From: Delphinus delphis
Lineage: Eukaryota; Chordata; Mammalia; Artiodactyla; Delphinidae
Direction: 5' to 3'
Length of the DNA stretch: 64,000 bases
NCBI RefSeq assembly: GCF_949987515.2
Contig: NW_027192671.1
Span: 62,001 to 126,000, forward strand
Shown piece after piece: positions 383 to 56,125 of the stretch (positions are counted from its first letter, which is position 1; every line of letters begins with the position of its first letter). Under the pieces are notes generated by a model. It made no database searches, had not been told where the DNA came from, and was given only the letters and a program-made list of their open reading frames with translations. The position numbers and the translations under genes are program-made.

Positions 383-392
383 CCAAGCAAGC

Positions 393-1218: not shown

Positions 1219-1889
1219 ATAGGATTGGAGAGGTTCGGTGAGCAAATGAAGACCCTTTGAAGTCATATTGCATGGTACCCATTCCACGGGTTTCAACTAC
1301 CCAGGTTTTAGGTATTCTTCCTTCAGCTAAAACATGCATGTGGAACCCAAGTATGATCAACCATGTGAACGGGAGACGTGTTCAAATATGTCTCAGTTTT
1401 CCTCCCCTGGTACTCGGGTGCAACATTCCAGCCGCTTTACTAACACTCTCCCCACTTGGAAAGTCAGCGCCTTTAACCTCCTTTTTGGCCCAGTTTGCAA
1501 TTTCTGCGGAAGATGAACAGGAATAGCGAGAACAAATGAGAGGCTAGCTGGAGGTGTCTGGACGGGCAAATTTAACTCTCATTTCCCACCAGGAAGAGGA
1601 AATAACCAAAGGCTCAGCATGCCGGGCCGGAACCAGATTAGGGCCTGAAGCCATCCTGCAGTGTTGCGGCCAGCTCAAAAGAAAGCGAGTTGAAGAAAGG
1701 AGCTCAGGGGCACTGTAATTCACAAACCTGCAGAGTTATAAATGACAGCTATCGTCCAAAAATAGACTGAAGTAAGGCTGCCAAGAGGACTTGAAAGCGG
1801 GGCAGAATTGCAGGAAACCGATTTCAGGAGGTAGACTGGAATTGCATTGAAAGCATAGGAAAAGAGGCAGAACGTCCACAATGATGCAC

Positions 1890-36400: not shown

Positions 36401-36560
36401 CTGCGGTGTTGCGGCCAGGTCACAAGAAAGCGAGTTGAAGAAAGGAGCTCAGGGGCACTGTAATTCACAAACCTGCAGAGTTATAAATGACAGCTATCGT
36501 CCAAAAATAGACTGAAGTAAGGCTGCCAAGAGGACTTGAAAGCGGGGCAGAATTGCAGGA
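32340..36560 (+). repeat. Block X-D-Y (single-dimer version)
   Basis: X matches 22,860-23,400 at an offset of 9,477 bp. Y matches about 29,420-30,240 at 6,318 bp. The offsets differ by 3,159 bp, exactly one dimer, so this copy has one D where the upstream block has two. Confidence 0.8.
33477..35055 (+). repeat. Satellite monomer M22 (1,579 bp)
   Basis: Short form, third copy of the M16/M18 type with the same CpG transition in the palindrome. CCCAACAGG at 34,752 is a private change. Confidence 0.9.
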
Positions 36561-36634
36561 ATCCGATTTCAGGAGGTAGGCTGGAATTGCATTGAAAGCA
36601 TAGGAAAAGAGGCAGAACGTCCACAATGATGCAC
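35056..36634 (+). repeat. Satellite monomer M23 (1,579 bp)
   Basis: Short form, perfect palindrome, relative of M19 but with GTGAACGGG and CTTGAAAAG. This is the short-form unit nearest to the island. Confidence 0.9.
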
Positions 36635-38214
36635 TTGGCCAAAAAGGGCGTATGCGTTTTTTCCTGAATATATTCAGGAAAAAACGCATACGCCCTTTTT
36701 GGCCAACCAAGCAAGCTTGCAAAGGAAATCTGCACTACAATGAAGTCTGACTTCCCCCCGGTCAAAAGGGCCATCTGAAAAAAGTGTAAAATCCAGAAAG
36801 GCAGGACAGGCCATGGAGAACTGGGAGCCTTGTTATGCTGATGGGCGGGATGTAAATTGCCAACAGACATTCGGGAGAAGTGTATGGTGTTTCCTGAAAC
36901 ATCTAAAAAACAAAGCAACAGAACCTAGGGCACTTCCACTTATGGTCCTATAGCTTAGGGAAATTAAAATGAAAAAGACACAGCCACCCCAACGTTTGGA
37001 ACGGCTCTGTTTACAAGAACCTCGTTTACAGTACAAGTTCAACATCGCAGAAAGTGAAAAATGGATAAAGAAGTTGTGGTATTTACTTACAAAGCAATAT
37101 CACTCAGCAATGAAATCTGTGTCATCAGGCCCTTAGCAGCACAATGAGTGGATTCAGGTATGATGATTCTAACTGAAATAAGTCACACAGAAAAAGAAAC
37201 ATCATAAGATATCAGTAATACACGGAATGTAAACTTGGCTACACAGGAACTGAATTACAGAACAGAACAGGGTCTCAAATTTAGAAAATCAACTTATGCT
37301 TGCTTAAGGGGAAAGGTGAGTTGGGGTGCTGCATAAAACCAGAGATTGAAATGAGCACAGATAAAGTTCCTTAAGCCAAATATGGAATAGACAAGAGCTA
37401 CTCCTTGCTCAACGAAATGGACTCAACACCGCATATTAAACGCCTAAGAATGTACCTGACTAGTAAGTATCTTAAAACCTATGGATTGCTATGTCTCCGA
37501 AAGAGAATCAAGCATGTGTACAGGGGCATGAACGCAGCAGTGATAGGATTGGAGAGGTTCGGTGAGCAAATGAAGACCCTTTGAAGTCATATTGCATGGT
37601 ACCCATTACACGGGTCTCAACTCTCCAGGTTTAAGGTATTCTTCCTTCAGCTAAAACATGCATGTGGAACCCCGCGTATGATCAACCGTGTGAACGGGAG
37701 ATGTGTTCAAATATGCCTCAGTTTTCCTCCCCTGGTACTCGGGTGCAACATTCCAGACCCTTTACTAACACTCTCCCGACTTGGAGAGTCAGCGCCTTTA
37801 ACCTCCTGTTTGGCCCAGTTTGCAATTTCTGCGGAAGATGAACAGGAATAGGGAGAACCAATGAGAGACTAGCTGGTGGTGTCTGGACGGGCAAATTTAA
37901 CTCTCATTTCCCACCAGGAAGAGGAAATAACCAAAGGCTCAGCGTGCCGTGCCGGAACCAGATTAGGGCCTGAAGCCATCCTGCGGTGTTGCGGCCAGCT
38001 CACAAGAAAGCGAGTTGAAGAAAGGAGCTCAGGGTCTCTGTAATTCACAAACCTGCAGAGTTATAAATGACAGCTATCGTCCAAAAATATACTGAAGTAA
38101 GGCTGCCAAGAGGACTTGAAAGCGGGGCAGAATTGCAGGATACCGATTTCAGGAGGTAGACTGGAATTGCATTGAAAGCATAGGAAAAGAGGCAGAACGT
38201 CCACAATGATGCAC
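36635..38214 (+). repeat. Satellite monomer M24 (1,580 bp)
   Basis: Length site reads CCGCGTATG, full length. CATTACACGGGTCTCAACTCTCC near 37,606 is shared in part with M26, M28 and M35 of the right array rather than with its left neighbours. Perfect palindrome. Confidence 0.9.
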
Positions 38215-39005
38215 TTTGCCAAAAGGGCGTATGCGTTTTTTCCTGAATATATTCAGGAAAAAACGCATACGCCCTTTTTGGCCAACCAAGCAAGCTTGCA
38301 AAGGAAATCTGCACTACAATGAAGTCTCACTTCCCCCCGGTCAAAAGGGCCATCTGAAAAAAGTGTAAAACCCAGAAAGGCAGGACAGGCCATGGAGAAC
38401 TGGGAGCCTTGTTATGCTGATGGGCGGGATGTAAATTGCCAACAGACACTCAGGAGATGTGTATGGTGTTTCCTGAAACATCTAAAAAACAAAGCAACAG
38501 AGCCTAGGGCACTTCCACTTATGGTCCTATAGGTTAGGGAAATTAATATCAAAAAGACACAGCAACCCCAAAATTTGGGATGGCTCTTTTTACAGAAATC
38601 TCTTCTATGGCACAAGTTAAATATCCCAGAGAGCAAATAATGGATAAAGAAGTTGCGGTACTTATGTACAACAGAATACCACTCAGCAATGAAATCTATG
38701 TCACCAGGCCCGTACCAGCATAATGAGTGCATTGAGGCACGATGATTCTAAGTGAAATAAGTCACACAGAAAAAGAAACATCATAAGGTATCACTAATAC
38801 ACGGAATGTGAACTTGGCTACACATGAACTGAATTACAAAACAGAACAGGGTCTCAAGTTTAGAAAACCAACTTATGCCTGCGTAAGGGGGAAGGTGAGT
38901 TGGGGTGCTGCATAAAAGCAGAGTTTGAAATTAGCACAGATACCGTTCCATAAGCCAAATATGTAATAGACAAGAGCTACCCCTTGCTCAACGAAATGGA
39001 TTCAA
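38215..39005 (+). repeat. Truncated edge monomer M25
   Basis: It starts as an ordinary unit; the palindrome has one missing base and one change (38,215-38,285). From about 38,530 many differences appear, for example TTTTTACAGAAATC and AAATATCCCAGAG. It stops after about 790 bp of unit, inside the L1-derived part, where another L1 begins. Near 38,785-38,900 it shares AAGGTATCAC, GTGAACTTGG, CACATGAAC, TTACAAAAC and AAGTTTAG with M26, the first unit across the island. Confidence 0.85.
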
Positions 39006-39744
39006 CAATGAGGTATCACCTCACACCTGGTAGAATAGGCATCATTGAAAATCTACAAACAAAAAATGCTGGAAAGGGTGTGGAGAAAAGGAACCCTCTT
39101 CCACTATTGTTGGGAATATAAATTGATACAGTCATTATGGAGAACAATATGGAATTTCTTAAGAAACTAACAATAGAATTACCATATGATACAGCAATCC
39201 CAGTACTGGACATATACCCAGACAAAACCATAAATCAAAAAGAGTCATTCACCGCAATGTTCATTGCATCACTATTTACAATATCGAGGTAATGGAAGCA
39301 ACCTAAATGCCCACAGACAGACGAATGCATAAAGCTGTGGTACATATATAAAATGGAATATTACTAAGCCATGAAAAGGAATGAAATTGGGTCATTTGTA
39401 GAGACGTCGATGGATCTAGAGACTGTCATACAGAGTGAAGTAAGTCAGAAAGAGAAAAACAAATCTTGTATATTCATGCATATATGTGGAACCTAGAAAA
39501 ACTGTACAGATTAACCATTTTGCAAGGCATAAATAGAGCAACAGATGTAGACAACAAACGTATGGACAACAAGGGGGGAAAGCTGTTGGGGGGGTGGTGG
39601 TGGGAGGAGTTGAGAGACTGGGATTGGCATGTATACATTTATATGTATAAAATAGATAACCAATAAGAACCTGCTGTATAAAAATATAAAATAAAATTCA
39701 AAATTAAAAAGAAATAAAATTTAAAAAATAAAACAGAAAAAACA
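39006..39744 (+). mobile_element. 5'-truncated LINE-1, 3' end of ORF2 plus 3' UTR and A-rich tail
   Basis: Starting with ACAATGAGGTATCACCTCAC, this follows L1 ORF2 near its C-terminus (GCTGGAAAGGGTGTGGAGAA, TGGGAATATAAATTGATACAG, ATTACTAAGCCATGAAAAGG). The 3' UTR follows with its G-rich run (GGGGGGGTGGTGGTGGG) near 39,588-39,605 and the tail CCTGCTGTATAAAAATA. It ends in A-rich sequence at about 39,744. Much less decayed than the satellite L1 half. No target-site duplication is recognisable, because satellite does not resume after the tail. It cannot encode a working ORF2 protein. Confidence 0.9.
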
Positions 39745-41233
39745 ATTATTCCCTGCACATACATGTATTTATATGAATAAATTATTTCCATGCTTATATC
39801 TGTAAATACAAAAAAGAGGAATAAAATCTACCTTGAACCAAAAACGAAAAAGAGAAAAAAAACACAGAACCCACCAGTTACACAGAGGAAAACCGTATCA
39901 GGGCACTTGCTCCAGTTGTAAACAATTCTGAAGTTGGTCAGTGGTGGGGAATCGTCTCCCATTCAGCCAGCAGCCCCCACGCAACAAGCGTCCTCATTGC
40001 AAAGCTGGGGCACCGTGCCGAGGCATCTGTGAGTAAACGTGAGCTGAGCCCCAGGCCAGTTGCTGCTGAACTATTCCCACCCGTCCCAGGTAAAACACCT
40101 GAATATATACAAGGACTTGAAAGCCTAGAGGAAGGGCCATAGAGCCACACGAGTGACAGCATGCCGGCCGACTTGGTGCCTGCAGGCCAGCCAGGATGGT
40201 CCTGGCCCTGGGTGCTCTTCTGGAAGATTTCCATTTCCCTGCCTGAGATACCCGTCCTGTCCCTGCCCCCACTGCTTTTTTCCTTCCTCACCTCTGCCCA
40301 GGGAGAAATTCCAGCAGCAGGTATGGGTGACACATCCTCTTCTTTAGCAGGTGGCAGCCTGGCAACTGCTGCAGAAAGTCCAGCAGAGCCCCACTCACAC
40401 TGGGCCACCCACAAAGCCGTGGCCTCTCACTCCCTCCCACCAGCCCAGCCCCGAGACTGCTGACAGGGCAGAGAAAATGGCGTCAGGCACGGCTGCAGGG
40501 GCTCTTGCTGCCTGGAGTGGTATTTATATTGATCTCAACCCAGGCACACCTGGGGAGGGCTGGCCGGCACGGTAAGGCTGCCCAGGTCAGCCAATCATCA
40601 CCCCTCAGGGGCTCACAGTTGCAGAAAATGGAACTTGCTGAACCGGCCAGGTCCAAGGAACAGGTGTGGGCTCCTGAGAGTCAGGATAGACAAGGGGCTG
40701 CAGCTTTGGCTTGTTTTCTAATCATTTTATCTGGCCCATGAGTGGGAGACAACTTCAAGAAAACCCTCTCCTAATGAGAGGAACCCAGGAGTCAGGCAGA
40801 GGAGGGGTGGGTGGTGGTTGGAGACAGAGGCCTGGTGCCCCGGGTGCAGTGGAAGTCTCTGGAAGACCAGGTGGAGGGAGGCCTCACGGAGTGATGCCCA
40901 GGGTCACAGACCTGTCGCAGCTGCTGTTTGTTAGTTCAAGTCCTGCTCTGAGGTGCTCTGTGTCAGCTCTGAGCGACAGGTGAGCTGGGGGTGCTCTGCA
41001 ATGAGGGCTATGTGCACGGTTCCTGTGTGCCCAGCCCTGCCACGGTACCTGCAAGGGTAGCTCTGTATCCTGGGAGGGGCCTGACCACGAGAGCCCCGTG
41101 GGCTGGGGTGGGGGTGGGGTACCTGCCCAGGTGAGCTCCATATTCTGGGATTGGTCTGACCACGAGAGCCCCATGGGCTGCTGGGGACCTGGTAAAAGAT
41201 GTCAGGACAGTCAGTGAAGCCACCGAGGATATA
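39745..41233. other. Island sequence without a recognised gene
   Basis: The first 150 bases are AT-rich and simple. From about 39,920 the sequence becomes GC-rich and non-repetitive in this window. Open frames of 60-158 codons exist on both strands but overlap each other and show no domain I recognise, as expected by chance in GC-rich DNA. There is a TATA-like TATTTATATTG near 40,520 with nothing else to support a promoter. It could be part of the retroviral element that follows, an unrelated dispersed repeat, or ancestral unique DNA. Confidence 0.5.
41044..41190 (+). repeat. Imperfect tandem duplication, about 75-bp unit, two copies
   Basis: GGTACCTG at 41,044 and 41,118 opens two similar segments that both contain GACCACGAGAGCCCC (41,083 and 41,158) followed by GGGCTG. 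The copies differ at several positions. Confidence 0.7.
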
Positions 41234-42260
41234 CCTCCAGTTGCTCCTAATTCCTACACCCTGCTGGTCATTCTACCAACCACCAGGACATGGTATTCTG
41301 TATTAGTCTTCAATGATGCCTTCTTTTGTATTCCATTAGTCCCAGAGTCACAAGAAATTTTGGCTTGTGAGTGGCAGGACTCAACATACAACTAAAACAA
41401 TACTTCCGGGCCGTCTGGCCCCAAGGGTGCAAAAATTCCCACACCATCTTTGGGGAAAGCTTAGCTAAAGACCTAAAAGTTCTACCTCTGGAAAAGGAAA
41501 CCCTCCTTCAATATGCAGACGACATTCTGATCACCAGCCCTACTAAGGAGGCCTCTGAACTACCAAGCCAATAAAGGATAGAAGTTGTCCAAGAAAAAGC
41601 TCAAATATCACAGACTGCGGTGACCTGCCTGGGCTTCATTCTCACAGAAGGTCAGAGAAGCCCATCCCAGGAAAGGGAAGAAACCATTTTCAGCCTTACC
41701 CCTTTCTAAAACTAGAAGACAGCTTAGGGGTTCCTGGGGAGGCCAGGGTTTGCTGCTTCTGGATCCCTAGCTACAGTCTACTAGCTGGGCCTCTATATGA
41801 AACACTGAAAGGAAAAGATGATGATCCTTTTGAATAGAATCCAGAAGTGGCCTTTCAAGAATGGAAAGAGCAGTCAATTCAGACCCTTGCCCTGGAACTC
41901 CCTAATTTAGCTAAACCCTTTGACCTTTACATTCCCGGTGAAAGGTGAATCGCCATTGGAGAATTAGTGCAAAAACTGGGACCACTTGAAATGGAACAAT
42001 GCAAGAATGCCATCCAGGTAGGATAAACTACGGTCACTAAGGGGCTTGGCCCACTGCCACATCTGGCCAAGATACTGGCGGTATCTAAAAACCTGGAAAT
42101 CAGCAGCCCAAAAGGCCACCTCCCTCCTAAGGGAAAAGGACCCCACGTGGTGATCCTAACCACCAACCATGCCCTGAAGTTGCAGGGTTCGCTCCGTGGG
42201 CACACCGACCTCGAGTGAGGAGGCCCTCCAACTCCAACATCCAGAGAGATAACCGGGGGC
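41234..42260 (+). pseudogene. Broken pol remnant of a gammaretrovirus-like endogenous retrovirus (ERV1 class)
   Basis: The plus strand encodes a recognisable reverse transcriptase fragment. From about 41,234 one frame reads through a DAFFCIPL-type palm segment to a stop near 41,393. The next part continues in another frame (41,371-41,574) and holds the catalytic-site variant YADD at 41,512-41,523, then stops. Further downstream LGFILTEGQ (near 41,630) and GPLYETLKG (near 41,790) fit the thumb and connection regions, and RNase H-like sequence follows with more stops. At least one frameshift and several stops interrupt it, and no gag or protease is visible. It is an old, inactive copy. Class assignment rests on motif recognition only. 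Confidence 0.75.
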
Positions 42261-42419
42261 AACAGGGCACCATGACGACTCATGTGAACATCACTCGACC
42301 TGGAGTTTCTCTCATAAAACAACAAGAGTGTGTCCCAAAAGAGTAGACTACTGCTTGCAGGACTTACTGCACCCAGAGGGGAGCTAATAATCTTGGCGGG
42401 GGAACAGTATACCACACTG

Positions 42420-42640
42420 TCACCATAGAAAAGCCTACAGACACCGTGATGATGGTGGCCAATAAGACCGGCTGGACTCCTGTTTACTTCAAAAGGCTGT
42501 TGACTCAGTAGCCATCATGGTCCTTGATCACCACTGACCCTGGACTGTCTGGGAGTTGAGCGGGCAGGGCTCTGACACCTGGTGCTGTTTGTACGTTAAT
42601 TCAGGGACCTAACTGAAGAAAGCACAGACTACTGGTCAGA
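42420..42640 (+). pseudogene. Env transmembrane-like remnant of the same retrovirus
   Basis: A short plus-strand stretch near 42,578-42,610 reads WCCLYVNSG, reminiscent of the cysteine pair and following residues in the transmembrane subunit of gammaretroviral envelopes. Stops and frame changes surround it. The position downstream of pol fits, but the match is short and weak. Confidence 0.4.
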
Positions 42641-43059
42641 GCATCTAGGCTGGCAGAGACGGTCAGCCTAAGGTGGCCGAACAAATGTGGGGCGGGGTGA
42701 AACCGGCCCCCACAGCGTCTCTGCACATCTCTTTCCTGGACCCTTAAAGGTCATTAGAATCTATAACACTTCCAATGCTGGTGCTCAGGTGGACGAGCAG
42801 GGAGGCAGGGGTCCTGGGGACAATCAACGTCACCGGGAGGCTGCTGGGGAGAAGCTCTGACCCTCGCCCCAGGGTATGAGGGCTCCCAACTCAGCACTCA
42901 GCAGTTACAGAAGAAGGGTCTGCACCCTCAGCACTCCAAGAATGAGGAACAGGACAAAAGGCAGAGGAGGGGTTTGTCCCCAGCAAAGCCCATTAAAAAT
43001 CCCTGGGAGATAAAAATAGAATCTGGGCAATAAAGTCAAGTCTAACTTTTTTTATCCTT
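42641..43059. other. Unassigned stretch inside the retroviral remnant
   Basis: No gene or repeat is recognised. It ends in an A-rich part with AATAAAGTC near 43,028 and a T-run, which could belong to the retroviral 3' region. Confidence 0.4.
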
Positions 43060-43450
43060 TGTGCTTTGTCTAATTTCACGTGCTCCTAGGGTCCCGCATG
43101 CAGAGGTTCCACACCCGGCACTTCAGACCAGATTTCCTAGTGCAGAATGGCTGGGTCGACACCTCAGCTCCTGGGGCCCAGTGCAGACTCCACGATATAG
43201 AGCCTGAGCTACAGCCAACCCGGCCCTCGAGAGCTCCACCGCCTCCCTCCCTCCCACTGACTCTGACAGGATCTCTACACAGCAGCCCAGCCCACAGCCC
43301 ACGGGGTAGTGCATGCTCTCACCTCTCCATTCTCTGATCAAAATATAAAGTTTCCTTTGCTTGTGAACCAAACTCAGTCTCGATCTGTTGGCCCCAATGA
43401 CACTGGGCAGGGGGACACTTGTTGGGGTCCACTCTGGAGGATCAGTAACA
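43060..43450 (+). mobile_element. LTR-like segment of the endogenous retrovirus
   Basis: The position after the env-like piece, a polyadenylation-like ATATAAAGTTTCC near 43,344, the following CTTTGCTTGTGAACC, and an ending region TTGTTGGGGTCC near 43,418 give the look of a gammaretroviral R-U5. The boundaries are not certain and I see no matching second LTR in the window, so it could be a 3' LTR or a rearranged 5' one. Confidence 0.4.
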
Positions 43451-43774
43451 GAAATTGAGACTATTGTAACCTCAATGAACAGATGTGTGAGCCAAACTGT
43501 AGTTAACATAGAACAGTGTATAAGGCTCGGGTAAAATAAGATGTTTTTAACACTTCCATTTGATATTTCCATCACTTTTTATAAGCAAGTTCAGTGAAAA
43601 GGTTTGTCTTATTTGTCAGGTCAATATTAGAGAAACGAAGTGATTTCTTTCCAAGGATGTACAGCTAATAATCTTGGTTAAACCTTCAATCTTGTTTTAA
43701 ATGCTTTTCCATTGAAAATGATACCTCTCTTTCAGCTCCCCCATTTCTGAGAAGTATAAAATCTTATAATTTAT
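43451..43774. other. AT-rich sequence with no recognised feature
   Basis: I see no gene, RNA gene or known repeat here. Confidence 0.4.
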
Positions 43775-43945
43775 TATTACCAAAGGGGAAAGGTGGGAGG
43801 AGGGATAAATTAACAGTTTGGAATGAACACATACACACTGCTATGTATAAAATAGATCATCAACAAGGAACTACTGTATAGCACAGGGAACTACACTCAA
43901 CATTTTGCAATAACCTATAAGGGGAAATAATCTGAAAAAGAATAG
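43775..43945 (+). mobile_element. L1 3' UTR fragment
   Basis: ATAAAATAGATCATCAACAA, GGAACTACTGTATAGCACAG and AATCTGAAAAAGAATAGATA are standard L1 3' UTR sequence in the sense direction. It lies just ahead of the first ancestral satellite piece. It may be an independent insertion or the better-preserved L1 half of D0, because the following TTTTTATTGACATCATCT loosely resembles the equivalent part of D1. Confidence 0.75.
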
Positions 43946-44154
43946 ATATTTTTATTGACATCATCTATCAATGACAGTTAAAGTGTAGCCTAAGGGAAGC
44001 TGGTGGTGAGTGCTTCTGACCCTGAAGACTTCAATCATCTAAAGTTTGGACTCTGCCTACTTCCCAAGGCCCTTAATGAACATATGTGTAGCCGTAGCTT
44101 AAAAACTTCCCCAGTTTGGGTTTCGGGGAGACACTGATTTTGAAAAAGCCCTGG
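43946..44154. other. Short spacer, no recognised feature
   Basis: I see nothing identifiable except the possible weak satellite similarity noted for the preceding L1 fragment. Confidence 0.35.
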
Positions 44155-44749
44155 TGTTCTCCTTACATGAATGGGACTCTTCCTACTGCTAAAACATGTC
44201 TGTCACACCCAGAGGATGGTATACCGTCTGATCGGGAAGAGTTTGGAAAAGGCATCTCATCTCCTCATCTCCTGGTGCTCGGGTTCACCCCTCCAGCGTC
44301 TTTACTAACAGTCTCCCCACTTGGAGATGTCAGCACTGTCAACATCCTGTTGCGTACAGTTTGGAATTTGTCCAGAGGATGAAGCGGAAGGATGAGGAAC
44401 AATGAGAGACAAGTCCTAGGTGTTCAGACAGGCACATGTCACTCTAATTTCCAATCAGGAAGACGAATTGACCAAAGGCTAGGGTTGCCCATGGAAACAG
44501 TATAGGGCTTGAGGAAATCCCGCTGCTTTGTGGCCAGTTCCCATAAACACGAGTTGAACAATGGAACTCAGGGGCAGTAAAATTCACAAAACTGCAGAGT
44601 TGAAAATATCCATCACTGAAAAATGTCTTGAGGAAAGTCAGAGAAAAGGACTTGTAAGCAAGGGAGAATGGCAGGAAAGGGATTTGAGGAGGTAGAAAGG
44701 ACTCGCCATTAAGCACAAGAAAAGGAGCTGAACATTGCCAACATTGCAG
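44155..44749 (+). repeat. Ancestral satellite unit D0, 3' part only
   Basis: Diverged but collinear with the unidentified third of the monomer: CTTCCTACTGCTAAAACATG, CCCAGAGGATGG at the length site, TGATCGGGAAGAG, CTCCCCACTTGGAGA and CACAAAACTGCAGAGTT occur in the same order and spacing as in the homogenised units. It is in phase with D1. Confidence 0.8.
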
Positions 44750-44819
44750 TTGGCCAAAAAGGGTGTATGCGTTCTTTTCTGTATATATTCAAGAAAAGGG
44801 CATACACTTTTTTAGCCAA
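44750..44819. repeat. Degenerate palindrome in D1
   Basis: Arms are recognisable (TTGGCCAAAAAGGGTGTATG and CATACACTTTTTTAGCCAA) but mismatched, and the inner arms are altered. The preceding base is G, so the outer end reads GTTGGCC, as on the right-hand side; this supports an originally longer inverted repeat. Confidence 0.8.
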
Positions 44820-44834
44820 CCAAACAGGTGGGCA

Positions 44835-45700
44835 CTGGAAGTCAATACTACAAAAGATATCACTTCGCATCAGTCAGAAGAGCCATCCTCATAAAGCGTA
44901 AACAACAGAAATGCAGGACAGGGCAACGAGAAGAGGGAGCCCTGTGAGACTTATAGTGGAAATGTATATTGCCAACGGCCATTCTGGAGAAGTGTATTGT
45001 GTTTACTAAAGCATCTAAAAAATGAGCTACAGAGCATAGGGCACTTGCACTCATGGGCGTATATCTTGGGAAAAACAAAAATCGAGAGGACACAGGCACC
45101 CCAATGTTTACCCCCTCTCTGTTTAAAAGATCCTCGACTAGGATATAACTTAAATGTCTCTGGAGGGAAAAAATGTGGTACTTAGGTAGAGTGGAATATT
45201 ATTCAGCCTGGAAATCAATGAAATATGGCCAGTTGTAACAACTCCGGAGGAGTTACGTATGATCATTCTAAGTGACAGAATTCAAAAAGAAAAAGACACA
45301 TATCATAAGATATCACTTAAAGGTGGAATCCAAAATGGCTACACATGAAATAAATTACAAAACAAAAACATAGTCAAATATGTAGAAAACACGCATAAGG
45401 CTGCTAAACGGGAAAGGTGGGGAGGGGTGAGGCATCATCCAGGAGGTTGAAATTAGCAAAGATACCATTCCAAATACCAAACTGATAATCAACAAGGCCT
45501 ACACGGTAGCTAAAAGAACTGCACTCAGCACACTCAAGTCACCGGAAAAGAATATATACGACTGGTAAGAATCTGAAAAAGAATTTATTGATGTCTCTCT
45601 GTACGCGAATCAAGTGGATGTACAGCAGCAAGAAACAGAGCTTTGAAAATCAGCTGTAACCAATATAGTAATAAATTGAAAAAAATAAACGACAGAGAGA
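44835..45700 (+). mobile_element. L1-derived part of D1, with tail
   Basis: Easier to align with L1 than in the array units: AAAGATATCACTTCGCATC, GGAATATTATTCAGCCTGG, ATAAGATATCACTTAAAGG and GTACAGCAGCAAGAAACAGA. It ends in AATAAATTGAAAAAAATAAA, the L1 A-rich tail, which the 1.58-kb units have lost. Confidence 0.85.
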
Positions 45701-45808
45701 CAGAGAAAACCTCTTACAACTTTTCCTCAGGGACGGTGATGCAACATGGATTGAACACATCTAGACCCACAGCAGGATGAGACATAAGGCTGGAAACTGT
45801 TTGCGCTA
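45647..45808 (+). other. Segment present in D1 and absent from all 1.58-kb monomers
   Basis: In array units the sequence jumps from CAGCAGTGA directly to TAGGATTGG. Here about 162 bp lie between the corresponding points: the L1 tail followed by unidentified sequence containing TGATGCAACATGGATTGA. Confidence 0.8.
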
Positions 45809-46479
45809 AGAGAAATGTGAGGTTGGGTGAGGAAATGCACACCCTTTAAAGTAATACTACCTGGTACCCATTCAATGGGTCCCAAATCTGCAGGTTCAAG
45901 GGATCTTCCTACAGCTAAAACATGCATGGAAAACCCAGAGGACTGTACACCATGTGATCGGGAGATGTGTCTAAAATGCACCTCATTTATCCTCTCCTGG
46001 TGCTCCTGTTCACCATTCCAGCCACGCTACTTAGAATCTCCCCACTTGGAGAATCAGCACATTTAAACTTCTGTTTCACACATTTTGCAAATTGTGAGGA
46101 GGATGAACGGGAAGAGGGGGAACCAATGAGAGAAGAGTTGTAGGGGTTTGGACGGGCACATATCACTCTAATTTCCCATTAAGAATAAGAATTAAAGAAA
46201 GGCTCAGCCTGCCTCGCCGGAGCCAAAATAGGGCCTGAAGCAATCCTGCGGGTTTGAGGCCAGCTCACAAAAGAGCAACTTAAAAAATGGAGCTCAGGGT
46301 CACTGCAATTCACAAACCTGCAGAGTTATAAATGAAAACTAACGTCCAAAAATATGTTGAGGTAAGGCAAAGAAGAGGATCTGAATGCAAGACAGAATTG
46401 CAAGAAACAGATTTCAAGAGATAGATTGGACTCGTCTTTAACGCACATGAAAAGCGGCAGAATTTCGACAATGATGCAG

Positions 46480-46551
46480 TTGGCCCAAAAGGGCGTATGC
46501 GTTTTTTCCTGATTATATCCAGGAAAAAACGCATACGCACTTTATGGGCAA
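46480..46551. repeat. Degenerate 72-bp palindrome in D2
   Basis: The inner arms are intact (GCGTATGCGTTTTTTCC with its complement), while the outer arms and centre have about six mismatched pairs by eye. The same total length as the perfect array palindromes indicates common descent. Confidence 0.85.
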
Positions 46552-46562
46552 CGAAGCAAGCA

Positions 46563-47440
46563 AGCAATGCAAATGTGCACAACAAAGAAGTCTCACTTCC
46601 CACCGGTCAAAAGGGCCATCCTAAAAAATTGTAAAAACCAGAAATGCAGGACAGGCCATGGAGAACAGGGAGCCTTTATACGCTGATGGGCAGTGTGTGA
46701 ACTGCCGAGAGCCACTCTGGAGAAGTGTATGGTGGTTCCTAAATCATCTAAAAAACAGAGCTACAGAGCATAGGACACTTCCAATCATGGGAGTATATCT
46801 AGGGAAGTCTAAAAATCAACAAGACACAAGCACACCACAGTTTAGGGCTACTCTGTTTACAAGAACCTCAACTTCAGTACACCTTAAATATCCCAGGAAA
46901 GAGAACAATGGATAAAGAAGATGTGGTACTTATGTACAATGGAATATCTCTTCACCATGAAATCAATGTAATAAGGCTAGTAGAAGGATAAAGAGTGGAT
47001 TTAGGTCCGATAATACTACTTGAAATAAGTCAAACAGAAAAAGAAACATATCATAAGATATCACTTATAGAGGGAGGGTAAATATGGCTGCACAAGAAAT
47101 GAATTACAGAACAGAACAGTGTCTCACATTTAGAAAACACACTTATGTCAGCTTAAGGGGAAAGGAGAGGTGGGGTGATGCATAAAACCAGAGTTTGAAA
47201 TTAGCACAGATACCGTTCAATAAACCAAATAGGTATTAGACAAGATCTACACCTTGCTCAATGAACAGGCCTCAACACACCCTATACACCGCAGAGAAAT
47301 ATATCTGAGGAATAAGAATCTTAAAACCCATGTATTGATATATCTCCATAAGGGAATCAAGTGTGTGCAGAGCGGCACAAACACAGCAGTGAAAAGGAGC
47401 TAAACCCCATTATAGAAATAAATTTTAAAAACAAAACGCT
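46563..47440 (+). mobile_element. L1-derived part of D2, with tail
   Basis: It begins with CAATGCAAATGTGCACAACA, an L1 ORF2-like start, just after the palindrome. It continues through GGATAAAGAAGATGTGGTAC and CATATCATAAGATATCACTT to an A-rich tail (AATTTTAAAAACAAAAC). Confidence 0.85.
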
Positions 47441-47559
47441 GAAACAATGAAAGAGAGAAAAATTCTTACAAAATTCGCTCAGGGGCTGTGATGCAACCTG
47501 GATTGACCACATATAAACCCACAGCTGGATAAGACATAAGGCTGGACACTTGGGGCTGA
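47393..47559 (+). other. About 167-bp segment missing from the 1.58-kb monomers
   Basis: Flanks match both sides of the deletion joint: CACAGCAGTGA before and CAGGATTGG after, against CAGCAGTGA|TAGGATTGG in the arrays. The content is the L1 tail plus sequence with CTGTGATGCAACCTGGATTG, also present in D1. The size accounts for the difference between 1,749 and 1,579 bp. Confidence 0.85.
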
Positions 47560-48228
47560 CAGGATTGGTGAGCTTTGGTGAGCAACTGCCGAAAGTTTAA
47601 TGCAATACTTCATGCTACTCAGTCCAAGGGTCCCAACACTCCAGGTTGAAGGGAATCTTCCTACAGCTAAACCATGCTTGGGAAACCCAGCGACTGGTAT
47701 ACCATATGATCGGGAAAGGTTTCTAAAACGCACCTCATTTTTCCTCTCCTGGGGCTCCGGATCGACATTCCAGCCGCTTTACTAACAACATCCCCACAGG
47801 GAGTCAATGCCTTTAAGTTCTGGTATCGCACAGTCTGCAGTTAGTGCAGAGGATGAATGGGAATAGGGGGAACCAGTGAGAAACTAGCTTTAGCGGTTTC
47901 AATGGGCACATGTCACTCTAATATCACATCAGTAAGAAGAATTAACCAAAGGCACAGCAGGTGCCCCAGAAGAAAAATAGGGCTTCAAGGAATCCTTTGG
48001 TTATGGGGCAATACCACAAAAATAAGAGCTAAAAAATGGAGCTAAGGGCCACTGCAATTCAAAACCCTGCAGAGTTATAAAGGCCAACTATTTTTAAAAA
48101 ATATATTGAGGTAAGGCTATGAAGAGGCATTGAAAGCAAGGCAGAATTGCAGGAAACCGATTTCAGGAGGTAGACTGGAATTGCATTGAAAGCATATGAA
48201 GAGAGTCAGAAACTCGACAATGATGCAC

Positions 48229-49807
48229 TTGGCCAAAAAGGGCGTATGCGTTTTTTCCTGAATATATTCAGGAAAAAACGCATACGCCCTTTTTGGCCAA
48301 CCAAGCAAGCTTGCAAAGGAAATCTGCACTAAAATGAAGTCTCACTTCCCCCCGGTCAAAAGGGCCATCTGAAAAAAGTGTAAAATCCATAAAGGCACGA
48401 CAGGCCATGGAGAACTGGGAGCCTTCTTATGCTGATGGGCGGGATGTAAATTGCCAACAGCCACTCTGGAGAAGTGTATGGTGTTTCCTGAAACATCTAA
48501 AACACAAAGCAACAGAGCCTAGGGCACTTACACTTATGGTCCTATAGCTTAGGGAAATTAAAATCAAAAAGACACAGCCACCCCAAAGTTTGGGACGGCT
48601 CTGTTTACAAGAACCTCGTTTACAGTACAAGTTCAATATCGCAGAAAGTGAAAAATGGATAAAGAACTTGTGGTACTTACGTACAATGCAATATCACTCA
48701 GCAATGAAATCTATGTCATCAGGCCCGTAGCAGCATAATGAGTGGATGCAGGTATGATGATTCGAACTGAAATAAGTCACACAGAAAAGAAACATCATAA
48801 GGTATCACTAATACACAGAATGTGAACTTGGCTACACATGAACTGAATTACAAAACAGAACAGTGTCTCAAGTTTAGAAAACCAACTTATGCTTGCTTAA
48901 GGGGGAAGGTGAGTTGGGGTGCTGCATAAAACCAGAGATTGAAATGAGCACAGATAAAGTTCCTTAAGCCAAATATGGAATAGACAAGAGCTACTCCTTG
49001 CTCAACGAAATGGACTCAACACCCCATATTAAACGCCTAAGAATGTACCTGACTAGTAAGTATCTTAAATCCTATGGATTGCTATGTCTCCAAAAGAGAA
49101 TCAAGCGTGTGTACAGGGGCATAAACGCAGCAGTGATAGGATTGGAGAGGTTCGGTGAGCAAATGAAGACCCTTTGAAGTCATATTGCATGGTACCCATT
49201 ACACGGGTCTCAACTCTCCAGGTTTAAGGTATTCTTCCTTCAGCTAAAACATGCATGTGGAACCCAGAGTATGATCAACCGTGTGAACAGGAGACGTGTT
49301 CAAATATGTCTCAGTTTTCCTCCCCTGGTACTCGGGTGCAACATTCCAGACGCTTTACTAACACTCTCCCCACTTGGAGAGTCAGCACCTTTAACCTCCT
49401 GTTTGGCCCCGTTTGCAATTTCTGCGGAAGATGAACAGGAATAGGGAGAACCAATGAGAGACTAGCTGGAGGTGTCTGGATGGGCAAATTTAACTCTCAT
49501 TTCCCACCAGAAAGAGGAAATAACCAAAGGCTCAGCATGTCGTGCCGGAACCAGATTAGGGCCTGAAGCCATCCAGCGGTGTTGCAGCCAGCTCACAAGA
49601 AAACGAGTTGAAGAAAGGAGCTCAGGGGCACTGTAATTCACAAACCTGCAGAGTTATAAATGACAGCTATCGTCCAAAAATAGACTGAAGTAAGGCTGCC
49701 AAGAGGACTTGAAAGCGGGGCAGAATTGCAGGAAACCGATTTCAGGAGGTAGACTGGAATTGCATTGAAAGCATAGGAAAAGAGGCAGAACTTCCACAAT
49801 GATGCAC
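48229..49807 (+). repeat. Edge monomer M26 (1,579 bp), first deletion-form unit of the right array
   Basis: Palindrome perfect. It already lacks the 167-bp block. The tract about 48,770-48,910 keeps older states shared with M25 (AAGGTATCAC, GTGAACTTGG, CACATGAAC, TTACAAAAC, AAGTTTAG). The length site is CAGAG, the ancestral state; a one-base loss in CAGAAAAGAAAC offsets the length. Confidence 0.9.
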
Positions 49808-51387
49808 TTGGCCAAAAAGAGCGTATGCGTTTTTTCCTGAATATATTCAGGGAAAAACGCATACGCCCTTTTTGGTCAACCAAGCAAACTTGCAAAGGAA
49901 ATCTGCAGTACAATGAAGTCTCACTTCCCCCCAGTCAAAAGGGCCATCTGAAAAAAGTGTAAAATCCAGAAAGGCAGGACAGGCCATGGAGAACTGGGAG
50001 CCTTGTTATGCTGATGGGCGGGATGTAAATTGCCAACAGACACTTGGGAGAAGTGTATGGTGTTTCCTGAAACATCTAAAAAACAAAGCAACAGAGCCTA
50101 GGGCACTTCCACTTATGGTCCTATAGCTTAGGGAAATTAAAATCAAAAAGACACAGCCACTGCAAAGTTTGGGACGCCTCTGTTTACAAGAACCTCGTTT
50201 ACAATACAAGTTCAACATCGCAGAAAGTGAAAAATGGATAAAGAAGTTGTGGTATTCACTTACAAAGCAATATCACTCAGCAATGAAATCTATGTCATCA
50301 GGCCCTTAGCAGCACAATGAGTGGATTCAGGTATGATGATTCTAACTGAAATAAGTCACACAGAAAAAGAAACATCATAAGATATCAGTAATACACGGAA
50401 TGTAAACTTGGCTACACAGGAACTGAATTACAGAACAGAACAGGGTCTCAAATTTAGAAAACCAACTTATGCTTGCTTAAGGGTAAAGGTGAGTTGGGGT
50501 GCTGCATAAAACCAGAGATTGAAATGAGCACAGATAAAGTTCCTTAAGCCAAATATGGAATAGACAAGAGCTACTCCTTGCTCAACGCAATGGACTCAAC
50601 ACCGCATTTTAAACGCCTAAGAATGTACCTGACTAGTAAGTATCTTAAAACCTATGGATTGCTATGTCTCCGAAAGAGAATCAAGCATGTGTACAGGGGC
50701 ATAAACGCAGCAGTGATAGGATTGGAGAGATTCGGTGAGGAAATGAAGACCCATTGAAGTCATATTGCATGGTACCCATTCCACGGGTTTCAACTACCCA
50801 GGTTTTAGGTATTCTTCCTTCAGCTAAAACATGCATGTGGAACCCAGAGTATGATCAACCATGTGATCGGGAGACGTGTTCAAATATGTCTCAGTTTTCG
50901 TACCCTGGTACTCGGGTACAACATTCCAGACGCTTTACTAACACTCTCCCGACTTGGAGAGTCAGTCCCTTTAACCTCCTGTTTGGCCCAGTTTGCAATT
51001 TCTGCGGAAGATGAACAGGAATAGCGAGAACCAATGAGAGACTAGCTGGAGGTGTCTGGACGGGCAAATTTAACTCTCATTTCCCACCAGGAAGAGGAAT
51101 TAACCAAAGGCTCAGCGTGCCGTGCCGGAACCAGATTAGGGCCTGAAGCCATCCTGCGGTGTTGCGGCCAGCTCACAAGAAAGCGAGTTGAAGAAAGGAG
51201 CTCAGGGGCACTGTAATTCACAAACCTGCAGAGTTATAAATGACAGCCATCGTCCAAAAATAGACTGAAGTAAGGCTGCCAAGAGGACTTGAAAGTGGGG
51301 CAGAATTGCAGGAAACCGATTTCAGGAGGTAGACTGGAATTGCATTGAAAGCATAGGAAAAGAGGCAGAACGTCCACAATGATGCAC
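49808..51387 (+). repeat. Satellite monomer M27 (1,580 bp)
   Basis: Length site CAGAG. The palindrome has three defects (AAGAGCG, TCAGGGAAAA, TTGGTCAAC). CGTACC near 50,900 is the same state as in long-form left units. Confidence 0.9.
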
Positions 51388-52966
51388 TTGGCCAAAAAGG
51401 GCGTATGCGTTTTTTCCTGAATATATTCAGGAAAAAACGCATACGCCCTTTTTGGCCAACCAAGCAAGCTTGCAAAGGAAATCTGCACTACAATGAAGTC
51501 TCACTTCCCCCCGGTCAAAAGGGCCATCTGAAAAAAGTGTAAAATCCAGAAAGGCAGGACAGGCCATGGAGAACTGGGAGCCTTGTTATGCTGATGGGCG
51601 GGATGTAAATTGCCAACAACCACTCGGGAGAAGTGTATGGTGTTTCCTGAAACATCTAAAAAACAAAGCAACAGAACCTAGGGCACTTCCACTTATGGTC
51701 CTATAGCTTAGGGAAATTAAAATCAAAAAGACACAGCCACCCCAAAGTTTGGAACGGCTCTGTTTACAAGAACCTCGTTTACAGTACAAGTTCAACATCG
51801 CAGAAAGTGAAAAATGGATAAAGAAGTTGTGGTATTTACTTACAAAGCAATATCACTCAGCAATGAAATCTGTGTCATCAGGCCCTTAGCAGCACAATGA
51901 GTGGATTCAGGTATGATGATTCTAACTGAAATAAGTCACACAGAAAAAGAAACATCATAAGATATCAGTAATACACGGAATGTAAACTTGGCTACACAGG
52001 AACTGAATTACAGAACAGAACAGGGTCTCAAATTTAGAAAACCAACTTATTCTTGCTTAAGGGTAAAGGTGAGTTGGGGTGCTGCATAAAACCAGAGATT
52101 GAAATGAGCACAGATAAAGTTCCTTAAGCCAAATATGGAATAGACAAGAGCTACTCCTTGCTCAACGAAATGGACTCAACACCGCATATTAAACGCCTAA
52201 GAAGGTACCTGTCTAGTAAGTATCTTAAAACCTATGGATTGCTATGTCTCCGAAAGAGAATCAAGCATGTGTACAGGGGCATAAACGCAGCAGTGATAGG
52301 ATTTGAGAGGTTCGTGAGCAAATGAAGACCCTTTGAAGTCATATTGCATGGTACCCATTACACGGGTCTCAACTCTCCAGGTTTAAGGTATTCTTCCTTC
52401 AGCTAAAACATGCATGTGGAACCCAGAGTATGATCAACCGTGTGAACGGGAGACGTGTTCAAATATGTCTCAGTTTTCCTCCCCTGGTACTCGGGTGCAA
52501 CATTCCAGACGCTTTACTAACACCCTCCCGACTTGGAGAGTCAGTCCCTTTAACCTCCTGTTTGGCCCAGTTTGCAATTTCTGCGGAAGGTGAACAGGAA
52601 TAGCGAGAACCAATGAGAGACTAGCTGGAGGTGTCTGGACGGGCAAATTTAACTCTAATTTCCCACCAGGAAGAGGAATTAACCAAAGGCTCAGCGTGCC
52701 GTGCCGGAACCAGATTAGGGCCTGAAGCCATCCTGCGGTGTTGCGGCCAGCTCACAAGAAAGTGAGTTGTAGAAAGGAGCTCAGGGGCACTGTAATTCAC
52801 AAACCTGCAGAGTTATAAATGACAGCTATCGTCCAAAAATAGACTGAAGTAAGGCTGCCAAGAGGACTTGAAAGCGGGGCAGAGTTGCAGGAAACCGATT
52901 TCAGGAGGTAGACTGAAATTGCATTGAAAGCATAGGAAAAGAGGCAGAACGTCCACAATGATGCAC
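51388..52966 (+). repeat. Satellite monomer M28 (1,579 bp)
   Basis: Length site CAGAG, perfect palindrome. One base is missing in GGTTCGTGAGC near 52,310. Confidence 0.9.
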
Positions 52967-54546
52967 TTGGCCAAAAAGGGCATATGCGTTTTTTCCTGAA
53001 TATATTCAGGAAAAAACGCATACGCCCTTTTTGGCCAACCAAGCAAGCTTGCAAAGGAAATCTGCACTACAATGAAGTCTCACTTCCCCCCGGTCAAAAG
53101 GGCCATCTGAAAAAAGTGTAAAATCCAGAAAGGCAGGACAGGCCATGGAGAACTGGGAGCCTTGTTATGCTGATGGGCGGGATGTAAATTGCCAACAGAC
53201 ACTTGGGAGAAGTGTATGGTGTTTCCTGAAACATCTAAAAAACAAAGCAACAGAGCCTAGGGCACTTCCACTTATGGTCCTATAGCTTAGGGAAATTAAA
53301 ATCAAAAAGACACAGCCACCCCAAAGTTTGGGACGCCTCAGTTTACAAGAACCTCGTTTACCGTACAAGTTCAACATCGCAGAAAGTGAAAAATGGATAA
53401 AGAAGTTGTGGTATTTACTTACAAAGCAATATCACTCAGCAATGAAATCTGTGTCCTCAGGCCCTTAGCAGCACAATGAGTGGATTCAGGTATGATGATT
53501 CTAACTGAAATAAGTCACACAGAAAAAGAAACATCATAAGATATCAGTAATACACGGAATGTAAACTTGGCTACACAGGAACTGAATTACAGAACAGAAC
53601 AGGGTCTCAAATTTAGAAAACCAACTTATTCTTGCTTAAGGGTAAAGGTGAGTTGGGGTGCTACATAAAACCAGAGATTGAAATGAGCACAGATAAAGTT
53701 CCTTAAGCCAAATATGGAATAGACAAGAGCTACTCCTTCCTCAACGAAATGGACTCAACACCGCATATTAAACGCCTAAGAATGTACCTGACTAGTAAGT
53801 ATCTTAAAACCTATGGATTGCTATGTCTCCGAAAGAGAATCAAGCATGTGTACAGGGGCATAAACGCAGCAGTGATAGGATTGGAGAGGTTCGGTGAGCA
53901 AATGAAGACCCTTTGAAGTCATATTGCATGGTACCCATTCCACGGGTTTCAACTACCCAGGTTTAAGGTATTCTTCCTTCAGCTAAAACATGCATGTGGA
54001 ACCTAGAGTATGATCAACCATGTGAACGGGAGACGTGTTCAAATATGTCTCAGTTTTCCTCCCCTGGTACTCGGGTGCAACATTCCAGACGCTTTACTAA
54101 CACTCTCCCCACTTGGAGAGTCAGCGCCTTTAACCTCCTGTTTGGCCCAGTTTGCAATTTCTGCGGAAGATGAACAGGAATAGCGAGAACCAATGAGAGG
54201 CTAGCTGGAGGTGTCTGGACGGGCAAATTTAACTCTCATTTCCCACCAGGAAGAGGAAATAACCAAAGGCTCAGTGTGCCGTGCCGGAACCAGATTAGGG
54301 CCTGAAGCCATCCTGCGGTGTTGCGGCCAGGTCACAAGAAAGCGAGTTGAAGAAAGGAGCTCAGGGGCACTGTAATTCACAAACCTGCAGAGTTATAAAT
54401 GACAGCTATCGTCCAAAAATAGACTGAAGTAAGGCTGCCAAGAGGACTTGAAAGCGGGGCAGAATTGCAGGAAACCGATTTCAGGAGGTAGACTGGAATT
54501 GCATTGAAAGCATAGGAAAAGAGGCAGAACGTCCACAATGATGCAC
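52967..54546 (+). repeat. Satellite monomer M29 (1,580 bp)
   Basis: Length site CTAGAG. The palindrome has one CpG transition (GGGCATATG). GTGCTACATAAAACC and CTCCTTCCTCAACG are shared with M32, 4,737 bp downstream. Confidence 0.9.
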
Positions 54547-56125
54547 TTGGCCAAAAAGGGCGTATGCGTTTTTTCCTGAATATATTCAGGAAAAAACGCA
54601 TACGCCCTTTTTGGCCAACCAAGCAAGCTTGCAAAGGAAATCTGCACTACAATGAAGTCTCACTTCCCCCCAGTCAAAAGGGCCATCTGAAAAAAGTGTA
54701 AAATCCAGAAAGGCAACAGGCCATTGAGAACTGGGAGCCTTGTTATGCTGATGGGCGGGATGTAAATTGCCAACAGACACTCGGGAGAAGTGTATGGTGT
54801 TTCCTGAAACATCTAAAAAACAAAGCAACAGAGCCTAGGGCACTTCCACTTATGGTCCTATAGCTTAGGGAAATTAAAATGAAAAAGACACAGCCACCCC
54901 AAAGTTTGGAACGGCTCTGTTTACAAGAACCTCGTTTACAGTACAAGTTCAACATCGCAGAAAGTGAAAAATGGATAAAGAAGTTGTGGTATTTACTTAC
55001 AAAGCAATATCACTCAGCAATGAAATCTGTGTCCTCAGGCCCTTAGCAGCACAATGAGTGGATTCAGGTATGATGATTCTAACTGAAATAAGTCACACAG
55101 AAAAAAGAAACATCATAAGATATCAGTAATACACGGAATGGAAACTTGGCTACACAGGAACTGAATTACAGAACAGAACAGGGTCTCAAATTTAGAAAAA
55201 CAACTTATTCTTGCTTAAGGGTAAAGGTGAGTTGGGGTGCTGCATAAAACCAGAGATTGAAATGAGCACAGATAAAGTTCCTTAAGCCAAATATGGAATA
55301 GACAAGAGCTACTCCTTGCTCAACGAAATGGACTCAACACCCCATATTAAACGCCTAAGAATGTACCTGACTAGTAAGTATCTTAAAACCTATGGATTGC
55401 TATGTCTCCGAAAGAGAATCAAACATGTGTACAGGGGCATAAACGCAGCAGTGATAGGAATGGAGAGGTTCGGTGAGCAAATGAAGACCCTTTGAAATCA
55501 TATTGCATGGTACCCATTCCACGGGTTTCAACTACCCAGGTTTAAGGTATTCTTCCTTCAGCTAAAACATGCATGTGGAACCTAGAGTATGATCAACCAT
55601 GTGATCGGGAGACGTGTTCAAATATGTCTCAGTTTTCCTCCCCTGGTACTCGGGTGCAACATTCCAGACGCTTTACTAACACTCTCCCCACTTGGAGAGT
55701 CAGCACCTTTAACCTCCTGTTTGGCACAGTTTGCAATTTCTGCGGAAGATGAACAGGAATAGCGAGAACCAATGAGAGGCTAGCTGGAGGTGTCTGGACG
55801 GGCAAATTTAACTCTCATTTCCCACCAGGAAGAGGAAATAACCAAAGGCTCAGCGTGCCGTACCGGAACCAGATTAGGGCCTGAAGCCATCCTGCGGTGT
55901 TGCGGCCAGGTCACAAGAAAGCGAGTTGAAGAAAGGAGCTCAGGGGCACTGTAATTCACACACCTGCAGAGTTATAAATGACAGCTATCGTCCAAAAATA
56001 GACTGAAGTAAGGCTGCCAAGAGGACTTGAAAGCGGGGCAGAATTGCAGGAAACCGATTTCAGGAGGTAGACTGGAATTGCATTGAAAGCATAGGAAAAG
56101 AGGCAGAACGTCCACAATGATGCAC
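54547..56125 (+). repeat. Satellite monomer M30 (1,579 bp)
   Basis: Perfect palindrome. GGCAACAGGCCATTGAG (two bases lost) near 54,712, AGGAATGGAGAGG, TTTGAAATCATATTGC and GGCACAGTTTGC are all shared with M31. Confidence 0.9.

What the first reader, a model, noticed from the sequence alone, without database searches (positions are those of the whole stretch)
44155..48228. Ancestral-length (about 1.75-kb) satellite units preserved in phase beside the 1.58-kb dolphin form
D1 (1,730 bp) and D2 (1,749 bp) are strongly diverged, collinear with the array monomer, and run in phase into the right array. Their length matches the unit remembered for non-delphinid cetaceans, while the arrays match the delphinid length. 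The locus seems to hold both the old and the new form of the satellite side by side, on the edge where homogenisation would be weakest.
Basis: partly seen in the sequence, partly recalled or inferred. Interest (0 to 1): 0.88.

Follow-up and report, generated by a model that had tools for sequence, protein, structure and literature searches.

The report
Old-form satellite units inside amplified module
Two worn, longer copies of a whale satellite repeat are older relatives of the short form that now dominates this genome, but they are not an undisturbed fossil: they ride in a roughly 10-kb spacer module copied about two thousand times through the satellite DNA.

Summary
D1 (44750-46479) and D2 (46480-48228) are collinear, in phase, 74% and 79% identical to the 1,579-bp array consensus, and both carry an extra block of about 165 bp. 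The window's genome is held, so the claim could be tested. All 12 long units aligned (10 places) carry the block, all 8 short units lack it; rooted with L1, the short form is one clade inside long-form diversity (rival rooting AU p=0.0005). The long form is ancestral; the 1.58-kb form arose by deletion. 'Delphinid versus other cetaceans' could not be tested.

The mechanism offered is wrong. D1/D2 are no neglected array edge but part of a ~10-kb module (island, partial unit, D1, D2, chimaeric return to array) whose left junction occurs 2,075 times. Of 20 copies fetched, 18 are full length at 98.2-99.5%. D1 differs by 0.6% between copies, the satellite just left of the island by 4.2%. The old form survived by being amplified. 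Closest analogue: ape subterminal caps with segmental-duplication spacers. New variant of a known kind.

The parts
1..39007 (+). left array of 1,579-bp short-form satellite units; the last ~470 bp are somewhat diverged (80-93% per 100 bp)
39008..44154 (+). island (non-satellite spacer) of the module, about 5.1 kb
39008..39565 (+). L1 3' portion abutting the left array; used as outgroup L1w
   Evidence: BLAST match to D1, D2 and the consensus; the name L1 from general knowledge and PMC9659126 (passage)
43787..43943 (+). second L1-like 3'UTR fragment in the island
   Evidence: BLAST matches to D1 and D2
44155..44749 (+). D0: partial, decayed satellite unit at the island's right end (match starts 44173)
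44750..46479 (+). D1: complete long-form unit, 1,730 bp here (1,740 in 17 of 18 other full copies)
45644..45806 (+). D1 copy of the extra block (163 bp) that the array lacks
   Evidence: unit positions 895-1057
46480..48228 (+). D2: complete long-form unit, 1,749 bp
47390..47556 (+). D2 copy of the extra block (167 bp)
   Evidence: unit positions 911-1077
48140..48217 (.). switch from long-form-like (65-83% per 60 bp) to array-like (about 96%) sequence: chimaeric junction of the module
48229..48300 (.). 72-bp palindrome, perfect in the first right-array unit and in 22 of 33 array units
48229..64000 (+). right array of short-form units

Best explanation
D1 and D2 are two different old lineages of the long (about 1.74-kb) form of a satellite whose first half comes from the 3' end of an L1 element. 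The 1.58-kb form arose once, within the group of long forms that holds D2, by deletion of about 165 bp, and then took over (about 148,000 copies). Beside an early short-form array lay an island of ordinary DNA followed by a few old long-form units. A homologous, in-phase exchange joined the second long unit to a short-form array just before the unit's palindrome, giving a closed piece: array, island, D0, D1, D2, array. That piece could then be passed on by unequal and ectopic exchange between arrays, and it now stands about 2,000 times on many chromosomes. Shown: the forms, the tree, the module, its copy number, its shared junctions and, in the sample listed, its fixed orientation. Inferred: the order of events and exchange as the spreading process.
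For: Block present in 12 of 12 long units from 10 places, absent in 8 of 8 short units. Short form monophyletic (100/100) and nested in long-form diversity with L1 as outgroup; long-form monophyly rejected, AU p=0.00046. At the 61 sites where D1=D2 differ from the array, L1 agrees with D at 35, with the array at 9, with neither at 17. Left junction 2,075 hits at up to 3 mismatches, reversed-pattern control 0; 18 of 20 fetched copies full length, 98.2-99.5%. D1 block 163 and D2 block 167 letters in 19 of 19 full-length copies, window included. Long-form block 4,677 hits, control 0; short-form deletion junction 147,974 hits, control 0. Neighbouring modules lie a whole number of array units apart (within 15 bp) in 21 of 35 close pairs; random-offset mean 0.63.
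Against: The pre-module state is inferred from one diverged locus (C2:150.75-150.79 Mb), and there the satellite next to the island is only about 80% like D0/D1 although the island is 92.6%, so replacement or conversion must be added. Fourteen of 35 neighbour pairs are out of phase by more than 15 bp. The 20 copies came from the listed hits with 0 mismatches at the junction, so their identity may be higher than that of an average copy. Rooting uses L1 copies behind a long branch (0.34-0.35) and only 714-716 columns. D1's place among the old long forms is weakly supported (UFBoot 53-73), and which long unit is nearest the short form is not settled (C8_60 at 60, D2 at 70). With whole units, D2 placed among the old long forms is rejected by AU (0.013) but not by SH (0.31). 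Satellite assembly may contain errors, and the window's own contig (C47, 2.35 Mb) is not chromosome scale.
Confidence: 0.8

Rival explanations
1. One reading: a single array edge where unequal exchange no longer reaches, so two ancestral units decayed in place.
For: Divergence rises outward in the window: array 97-99%, D2 79%, D1 74%, then non-satellite DNA. The left edge also loosens (80-93%). Such decay probably did happen once, before amplification.
Against: The same edge is repeated: all 40 places scored (the window's own among them) hold the full D2 at 100% after rounding, out of 901 candidates; 2,075 left junctions; mean pairwise D1 difference 0.6% over 19 copies.
Confidence: 0.1
2. D1 and D2 are long only because of an insertion into the D lineage; the short form is the original.
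For: Only the minority of sites (9 of 61) where L1 agrees with the array against both D units, and the weak scores of most L1-tail alignments.
Against: Long-form units lie on both sides of the deepest split of the L1-rooted tree and the short form in one inner clade. The start of the block is where L1 3' ends align best in 5 of 6 long-form tests, and in 0 of 2 tests of the short consensus, although only one of the six scores beats all 500 shuffles.
Confidence: 0.03
3. The repeated module is an assembly artefact (one edge copied into many contigs).
For: Many copies lie on small contigs that are not chromosome scale.
Against: Copies differ from each other (0.6-0.8% on average in D1 and island, 4.2% in the flanking satellite), stand also on the chromosome-scale contigs C1, C2, C3, C5, C6, C7, C8 and C12, and are separated by different numbers of array units.
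Confidence: 0.04

Closest known systems
Common cetacean satellite (1,579-bp killer-whale component; L1-derived heterochromatin satellite of cetaceans)
   Same: Unit length 1,579 bp; L1 3'-end homology in the unit; very abundant (short-form junction hits x unit length = about 234 Mb, 8.8% of the assembly).
   Different: No published unit sequence was available to align. Added here: long-form units in the same genome and the 10-kb module. I saw neither described in the listings and passages of searches; that library lacks most subscription journals, where the older satellite papers appeared.
African great ape subterminal caps: pCht satellite arrays broken by segmental-duplication spacers (PMC12758386; abstract and section 4 read)
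   Same: Long satellite arrays irregularly interrupted by a non-satellite spacer present in hundreds to thousands of closely similar copies on non-homologous chromosomes; ectopic exchange proposed there.
   Different: A different satellite (32 bp against 1,579 bp) and spacer; here the spacer module also carries two old units of the surrounding satellite; blocks are interstitial as well as terminal; methylation unknown here.
Satellite library hypothesis and low-copy ancestral variants that escape homogenisation (PMC5615363, passages)
   Same: Old variants persist as small clusters of long-form units at many places.
   Different: D1/D2 persist by being amplified and homogenised with a module, not by low copy number.

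Membership tests
Common cetacean satellite | 1,579-bp unit | tested here: met
   33 units of 1,578-1,580 bp; the title of Widegren et al. 1985 gives 1,579 bp (reference list seen)
Common cetacean satellite | homology to the L1 3' end | tested here: met
   the published claim seen as a passage of PMC9659126
Common cetacean satellite | sequence identity with a published unit from a named cetacean | not testable with these tools
   no cetacean collection at hand; pattern scans of viral contigs and genome contigs found 0 stretches
Ancestral long form (about 1.75 kb) of that satellite | branches outside the short-form clade | tested here: met
Ancestral long form (about 1.75 kb) of that satellite | identity with units of non-delphinid cetaceans | not testable with these tools
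Array-edge relic outside homogenisation | divergence grows toward the non-satellite edge | tested here: met
Array-edge relic outside homogenisation | unique or rare, not co-amplified | tested here: not met
Ape-type cap with spacer modules | satellite arrays irregularly interrupted by one amplified spacer | tested here: met
   2,075 junctions; about 1 to 29 array units between neighbours in the 35 close pairs
Ape-type cap with spacer modules | subterminal position | tested here: inconclusive
   38 of the 63 listed hits on chromosome-scale contigs lie within about 1.6 Mb of a contig end, 24 in interstitial blocks, 1 apart; those contig ends were not shown to be telomeres
Ape-type cap with spacer modules | undermethylated spacer | not testable with these tools
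   no methylation data
Ape-type cap with spacer modules | pCht 32-bp satellite | tested here: not met
   unit is 1,579 bp; works like, is not a member
Higher-order repeat | fixed larger period | tested here: not met
   spacing varies; only local runs such as four steps of 11,603 bp on C25

The most novel reading that the evidence does not exclude
The spacer module is the unit of exchange that keeps this satellite alike across non-homologous chromosomes: it moves in one fixed orientation relative to the neighbouring euchromatin, breaks and rejoins at the satellite's palindrome, and thereby preserves two old lineages of the satellite as passengers, so ancient variants can be kept by amplification instead of isolation.
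Probability: 0.2. Interest if true: 0.75.

Novelty: new variant of a known kind. Interest (0 to 1): 0.55.

Why it matters
It gives an ordered record of satellite turnover inside one genome: relic long forms at many places, one deletion, a takeover by about 148,000 short units, and a module that carried two old units along. It also gives whales a counterpart of the ape cap spacers, with about 2,075 copies, where the question whether spacers promote exchange between non-homologous chromosomes can be tested in an unrelated lineage and with a different satellite.

Tried and rejected
Exact-pattern scans of viral contigs and genome contigs for L1 or satellite letters found 0 stretches. A DNA search of the own genome with the 181-bp L1 fragment found nothing (the tool skips very common words); a pattern for complete L1 3' ends did not complete, so the L1-tail argument rests on two related L1 copies near C2:150.75 Mb and stays weak. 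I thought that the break between the C2 locus and the modules also lay at the palindrome; one search showed that identity falls already near the island/satellite boundary (about 80% from 44280 on), and I dropped that. The telomere pattern had 10,283 hits, but its listing was almost filled by the start of C2, so it does not show whether other contig ends are telomeres. In one search the constraint 'longs_monophyletic' is the same split as the best unrooted tree and tests nothing; the rooted version does. Calendar ages are not claimed: the island distance of 0.078 would give about 39-76 million years at 1e-9 to 5.14e-10 per site and year (the second rate is the one quoted in PMC10919930 for mysticetes, passages; the first is assumed), and heterochromatin may mutate faster.

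Rows dropped or chosen: the 20 copies were picked from the first 100 of 2,075 hits, all with 0 mismatches at the junction. For the trees I used 10 long-form units out of the 151 matches (23 candidates scored of 10,937), plus D1 and D2, and 10 or 6 of the 33 array units. L013 (diverged) and L021 (truncated) were left out. C2_150E1 was left out of the palindrome pair count. The offset of 10,024 bp was set after seeing the spacings; the random offsets of the control include the true one, which presumably explains its maximum of 21; several of the in-phase pairs are local repeats of one another (C25, C1) and not independent.

Full report
What is in the window. From 1 to 39007 and from 48229 to the end lies a satellite with a 1,579-bp period. 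Thirty-three complete units are 1,578-1,580 bp. Between the arrays lie a 5.1-kb island without satellite (39008-44154), a partial unit D0 (44155-44749), D1 (44750-46479, 1,730 bp) and D2 (46480-48228, 1,749 bp). D1 is 74.1% and D2 78.8% identical to the array consensus; D1 and D2 are 74.7% identical to each other. Both carry one block that the array lacks, 163 and 167 bp long and 78% identical to each other (126/161).

Which form is older. The unit's first half is homologous to an L1 3' end (D1 62%, E=2e-32, against the L1 piece that abuts the left array), in agreement with the claim attributed to Kapitonov et al. 1998 in PMC9659126 (passage seen). L1 can therefore root that half. Of 61 sites where D1=D2 differ from the array, L1 agrees with D at 35, with the array at 9, with neither at 17. 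Of 109 sites where D2=array differ from D1, L1 agrees with D1 at 42, with the others at 47, with neither at 20. Of 39 sites where D1=array differ from D2, L1 agrees with D2 at 5, with the others at 24, with neither at 10. This fits (L1,(D1,(D2,array))): D1 and D2 are two lineages, not a pair. A tree with D1 and D2 as sisters is rejected too (AU p about 6e-59).

The whole genome settles it further. A long-form unit from C2:150.77 Mb finds further long-form units in small clusters on at least 15 contigs; the matches that cover nearly the whole query are 1.69-1.78 kb long (23 of 10,937 candidates scored). I aligned ten such units with D1, D2 and eight short units: 12 of 12 long units hold 152-193 letters in the block, 8 of 8 short units hold none. 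The short units form one clade (100/100). With L1 as outgroup the short clade lies inside the long forms, in a group with D2 and units from C22, C8, C1 and C2:89 Mb (100/100 for that group); which of these is nearest is not settled. D1 goes with units from C2:150, C12, C7 and C5 on weak support (53-73). Forcing D1 and D2 into one clade with the six array units costs 520 log-likelihood units (AU p about 3e-46); forcing all long forms to be one clade apart from the short ones, in the rooted data, costs 55 (AU p=0.00046). The plainest reading is that the short form is a single deletion from a long form. The start of the deleted block is where L1 3' ends fall (5 of 6 best alignments in the expected place, 0 of 2 for the short consensus), but only one of the six scores beats all 500 shuffles; the other five are reached by 31, 48, 140, 211 and 311 of 500.

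Why this is not an edge relic. D2 was found complete at all 40 scored places of 901 candidates, identity 100% after rounding, and a non-satellite part of the island at all 40 scored of 710; both sets include the window's own copy. The left junction, half satellite and half L1, occurs 2,075 times with up to 3 mismatches, control 0. Of 20 copies fetched, 17 match the window from 38291 to about 48270-48283 in one piece and one (L016) in two pieces around an insertion, at 98.2-99.5%; one (L021) stops at 43583; one (L013) is diverged. These 20 were taken from hits with no mismatch at the junction, so an average copy may be less alike. Over 19 full copies, window included, the mean pairwise difference is 0.61% in D1, 0.78% in the island, 1.2% in D2, 4.2% in the satellite just left of the island and 3.6% in the 141 bp after the right switch begins. 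D1 and D2 are thus kept more alike across the copies than the satellite beside them. The shared block has 4,677 hits, which would be about two per module plus some hundreds elsewhere; the short-form deletion junction has 147,974, or roughly one module per 71 short units and 8.8% of the assembly in short units.

How the module may have formed. D2 turns into array sequence at 48140-48217, 12 to 89 bp before the 72-bp palindrome of the first array unit. The 18 full-length fetched copies align through this switch. Neighbouring modules on one strand and less than 60 kb apart lie at 10,024 bp plus a whole number of array units, within 15 bp, in 21 of 35 pairs (mean 0.63 for random offsets, maximum 21). 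Of the other 14, six differ by +169 to +185 or by -168 and -196 bp, about the length difference of one long unit; two differ by +225 in a run whose D1 is longer (L016); six by other amounts. That is what in-phase exchange between long and short units could leave. At C2:150.75-150.79 Mb the same junction and island (375 of 5,097 sites different, 7.4%) lie between about 2.7 short units on one side and a few long units on the other, with only L1-type matches in the 19.6 kb beyond and no return to a short array. I take this as the nearest thing to the state before closure, with the reservation that its satellite is only about 80% like D0 and D1. Its short units already have the deletion, so, unless they were converted later, the short form is older than the split of that locus from the modules. 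The modules differ among themselves by about a tenth of that distance (0.8% in the island), which homogenisation may have lowered.

Orientation. Of the 100 listed left junctions, 63 lie on chromosome-scale contigs. Thirty-eight are near contig ends, all '+' at low ends and '-' at high ends; 24 lie in interstitial blocks that are '-' on the left and, where both sides are listed, flip once to '+'; one is the diverged C2 copy. The 37 on C24 and C25 are all '-'. In this sample the direction island to D points to the adjoining euchromatin. Some single long-form hits outside blocks (for example C2:89.4, C2:107.7 and C4:109.1 Mb) are not covered by this rule.

Comparison. The arrays fit the common cetacean satellite; the title of Widegren et al. 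1985 names a 1,579-bp killer-whale component (reference list), and heterochromatin is given as 25-30% of whale genomes (PMC7763226, passage). The arrangement works like the ape subterminal caps, in which pCht arrays are interrupted by segmental-duplication spacers of about 413, 430 and 700 copies per haplotype (PMC12758386, abstract and section 4 read). It is not a member of that family. I saw no description of the module, or of long-form units beside short ones, in the listings of searches, but that library lacks the older satellite papers.

What stays open. No age is claimed. That exchange spreads the module is inference from phase, orientation and identity.

Noticed in passing
48229-48300 and the same place in the array units: A 72-bp palindrome, perfect in 22 of 33 array units and never below 33 of 36 arm pairs; about half the mean site diversity, though only 11th most conserved of 63 windows. 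Across 18 divergent or array units 8 symmetric double changes against 1.6 expected by shuffling (most 6); five of the eight are C-to-T with G-to-A changes that CpG decay on both arms could give.
   Followed up: partly
about 41400-42000: A fragment in the island resembles retroviral pol (judged by eye, motif recalled; no search run). Described only.
   Followed up: no
C1 121 Mb, C2 95 Mb, C3 38 Mb, C5 52 Mb, C7 95 Mb of G000: Interstitial satellite blocks flip orientation once, '-' then '+', as centromere-flanking or fused terminal blocks would.
   Followed up: partly
C2:150.77, C12:46.34, C7:97.03, C5:39.27 Mb of G000: Near-copies (92-96% to the C2 unit) of one long-form cluster with the same internal gaps in the match: an old segmental duplication of a relic satellite locus.
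   Followed up: partly
joined stretch L030, L029, L013, L031 (C2:150.75-150.79 Mb): A 592-bp spacing recurs in the C2 region (223 word pairs, with 1,184 and 1,776), perhaps another tandem repeat; not located.
   Followed up: no
L016 (C3:38.09 Mb): A module variant with D1 of 1,801 bp; its neighbours stand at two steps of 11,828 bp, as if one variant had been amplified in tandem.
   Followed up: no
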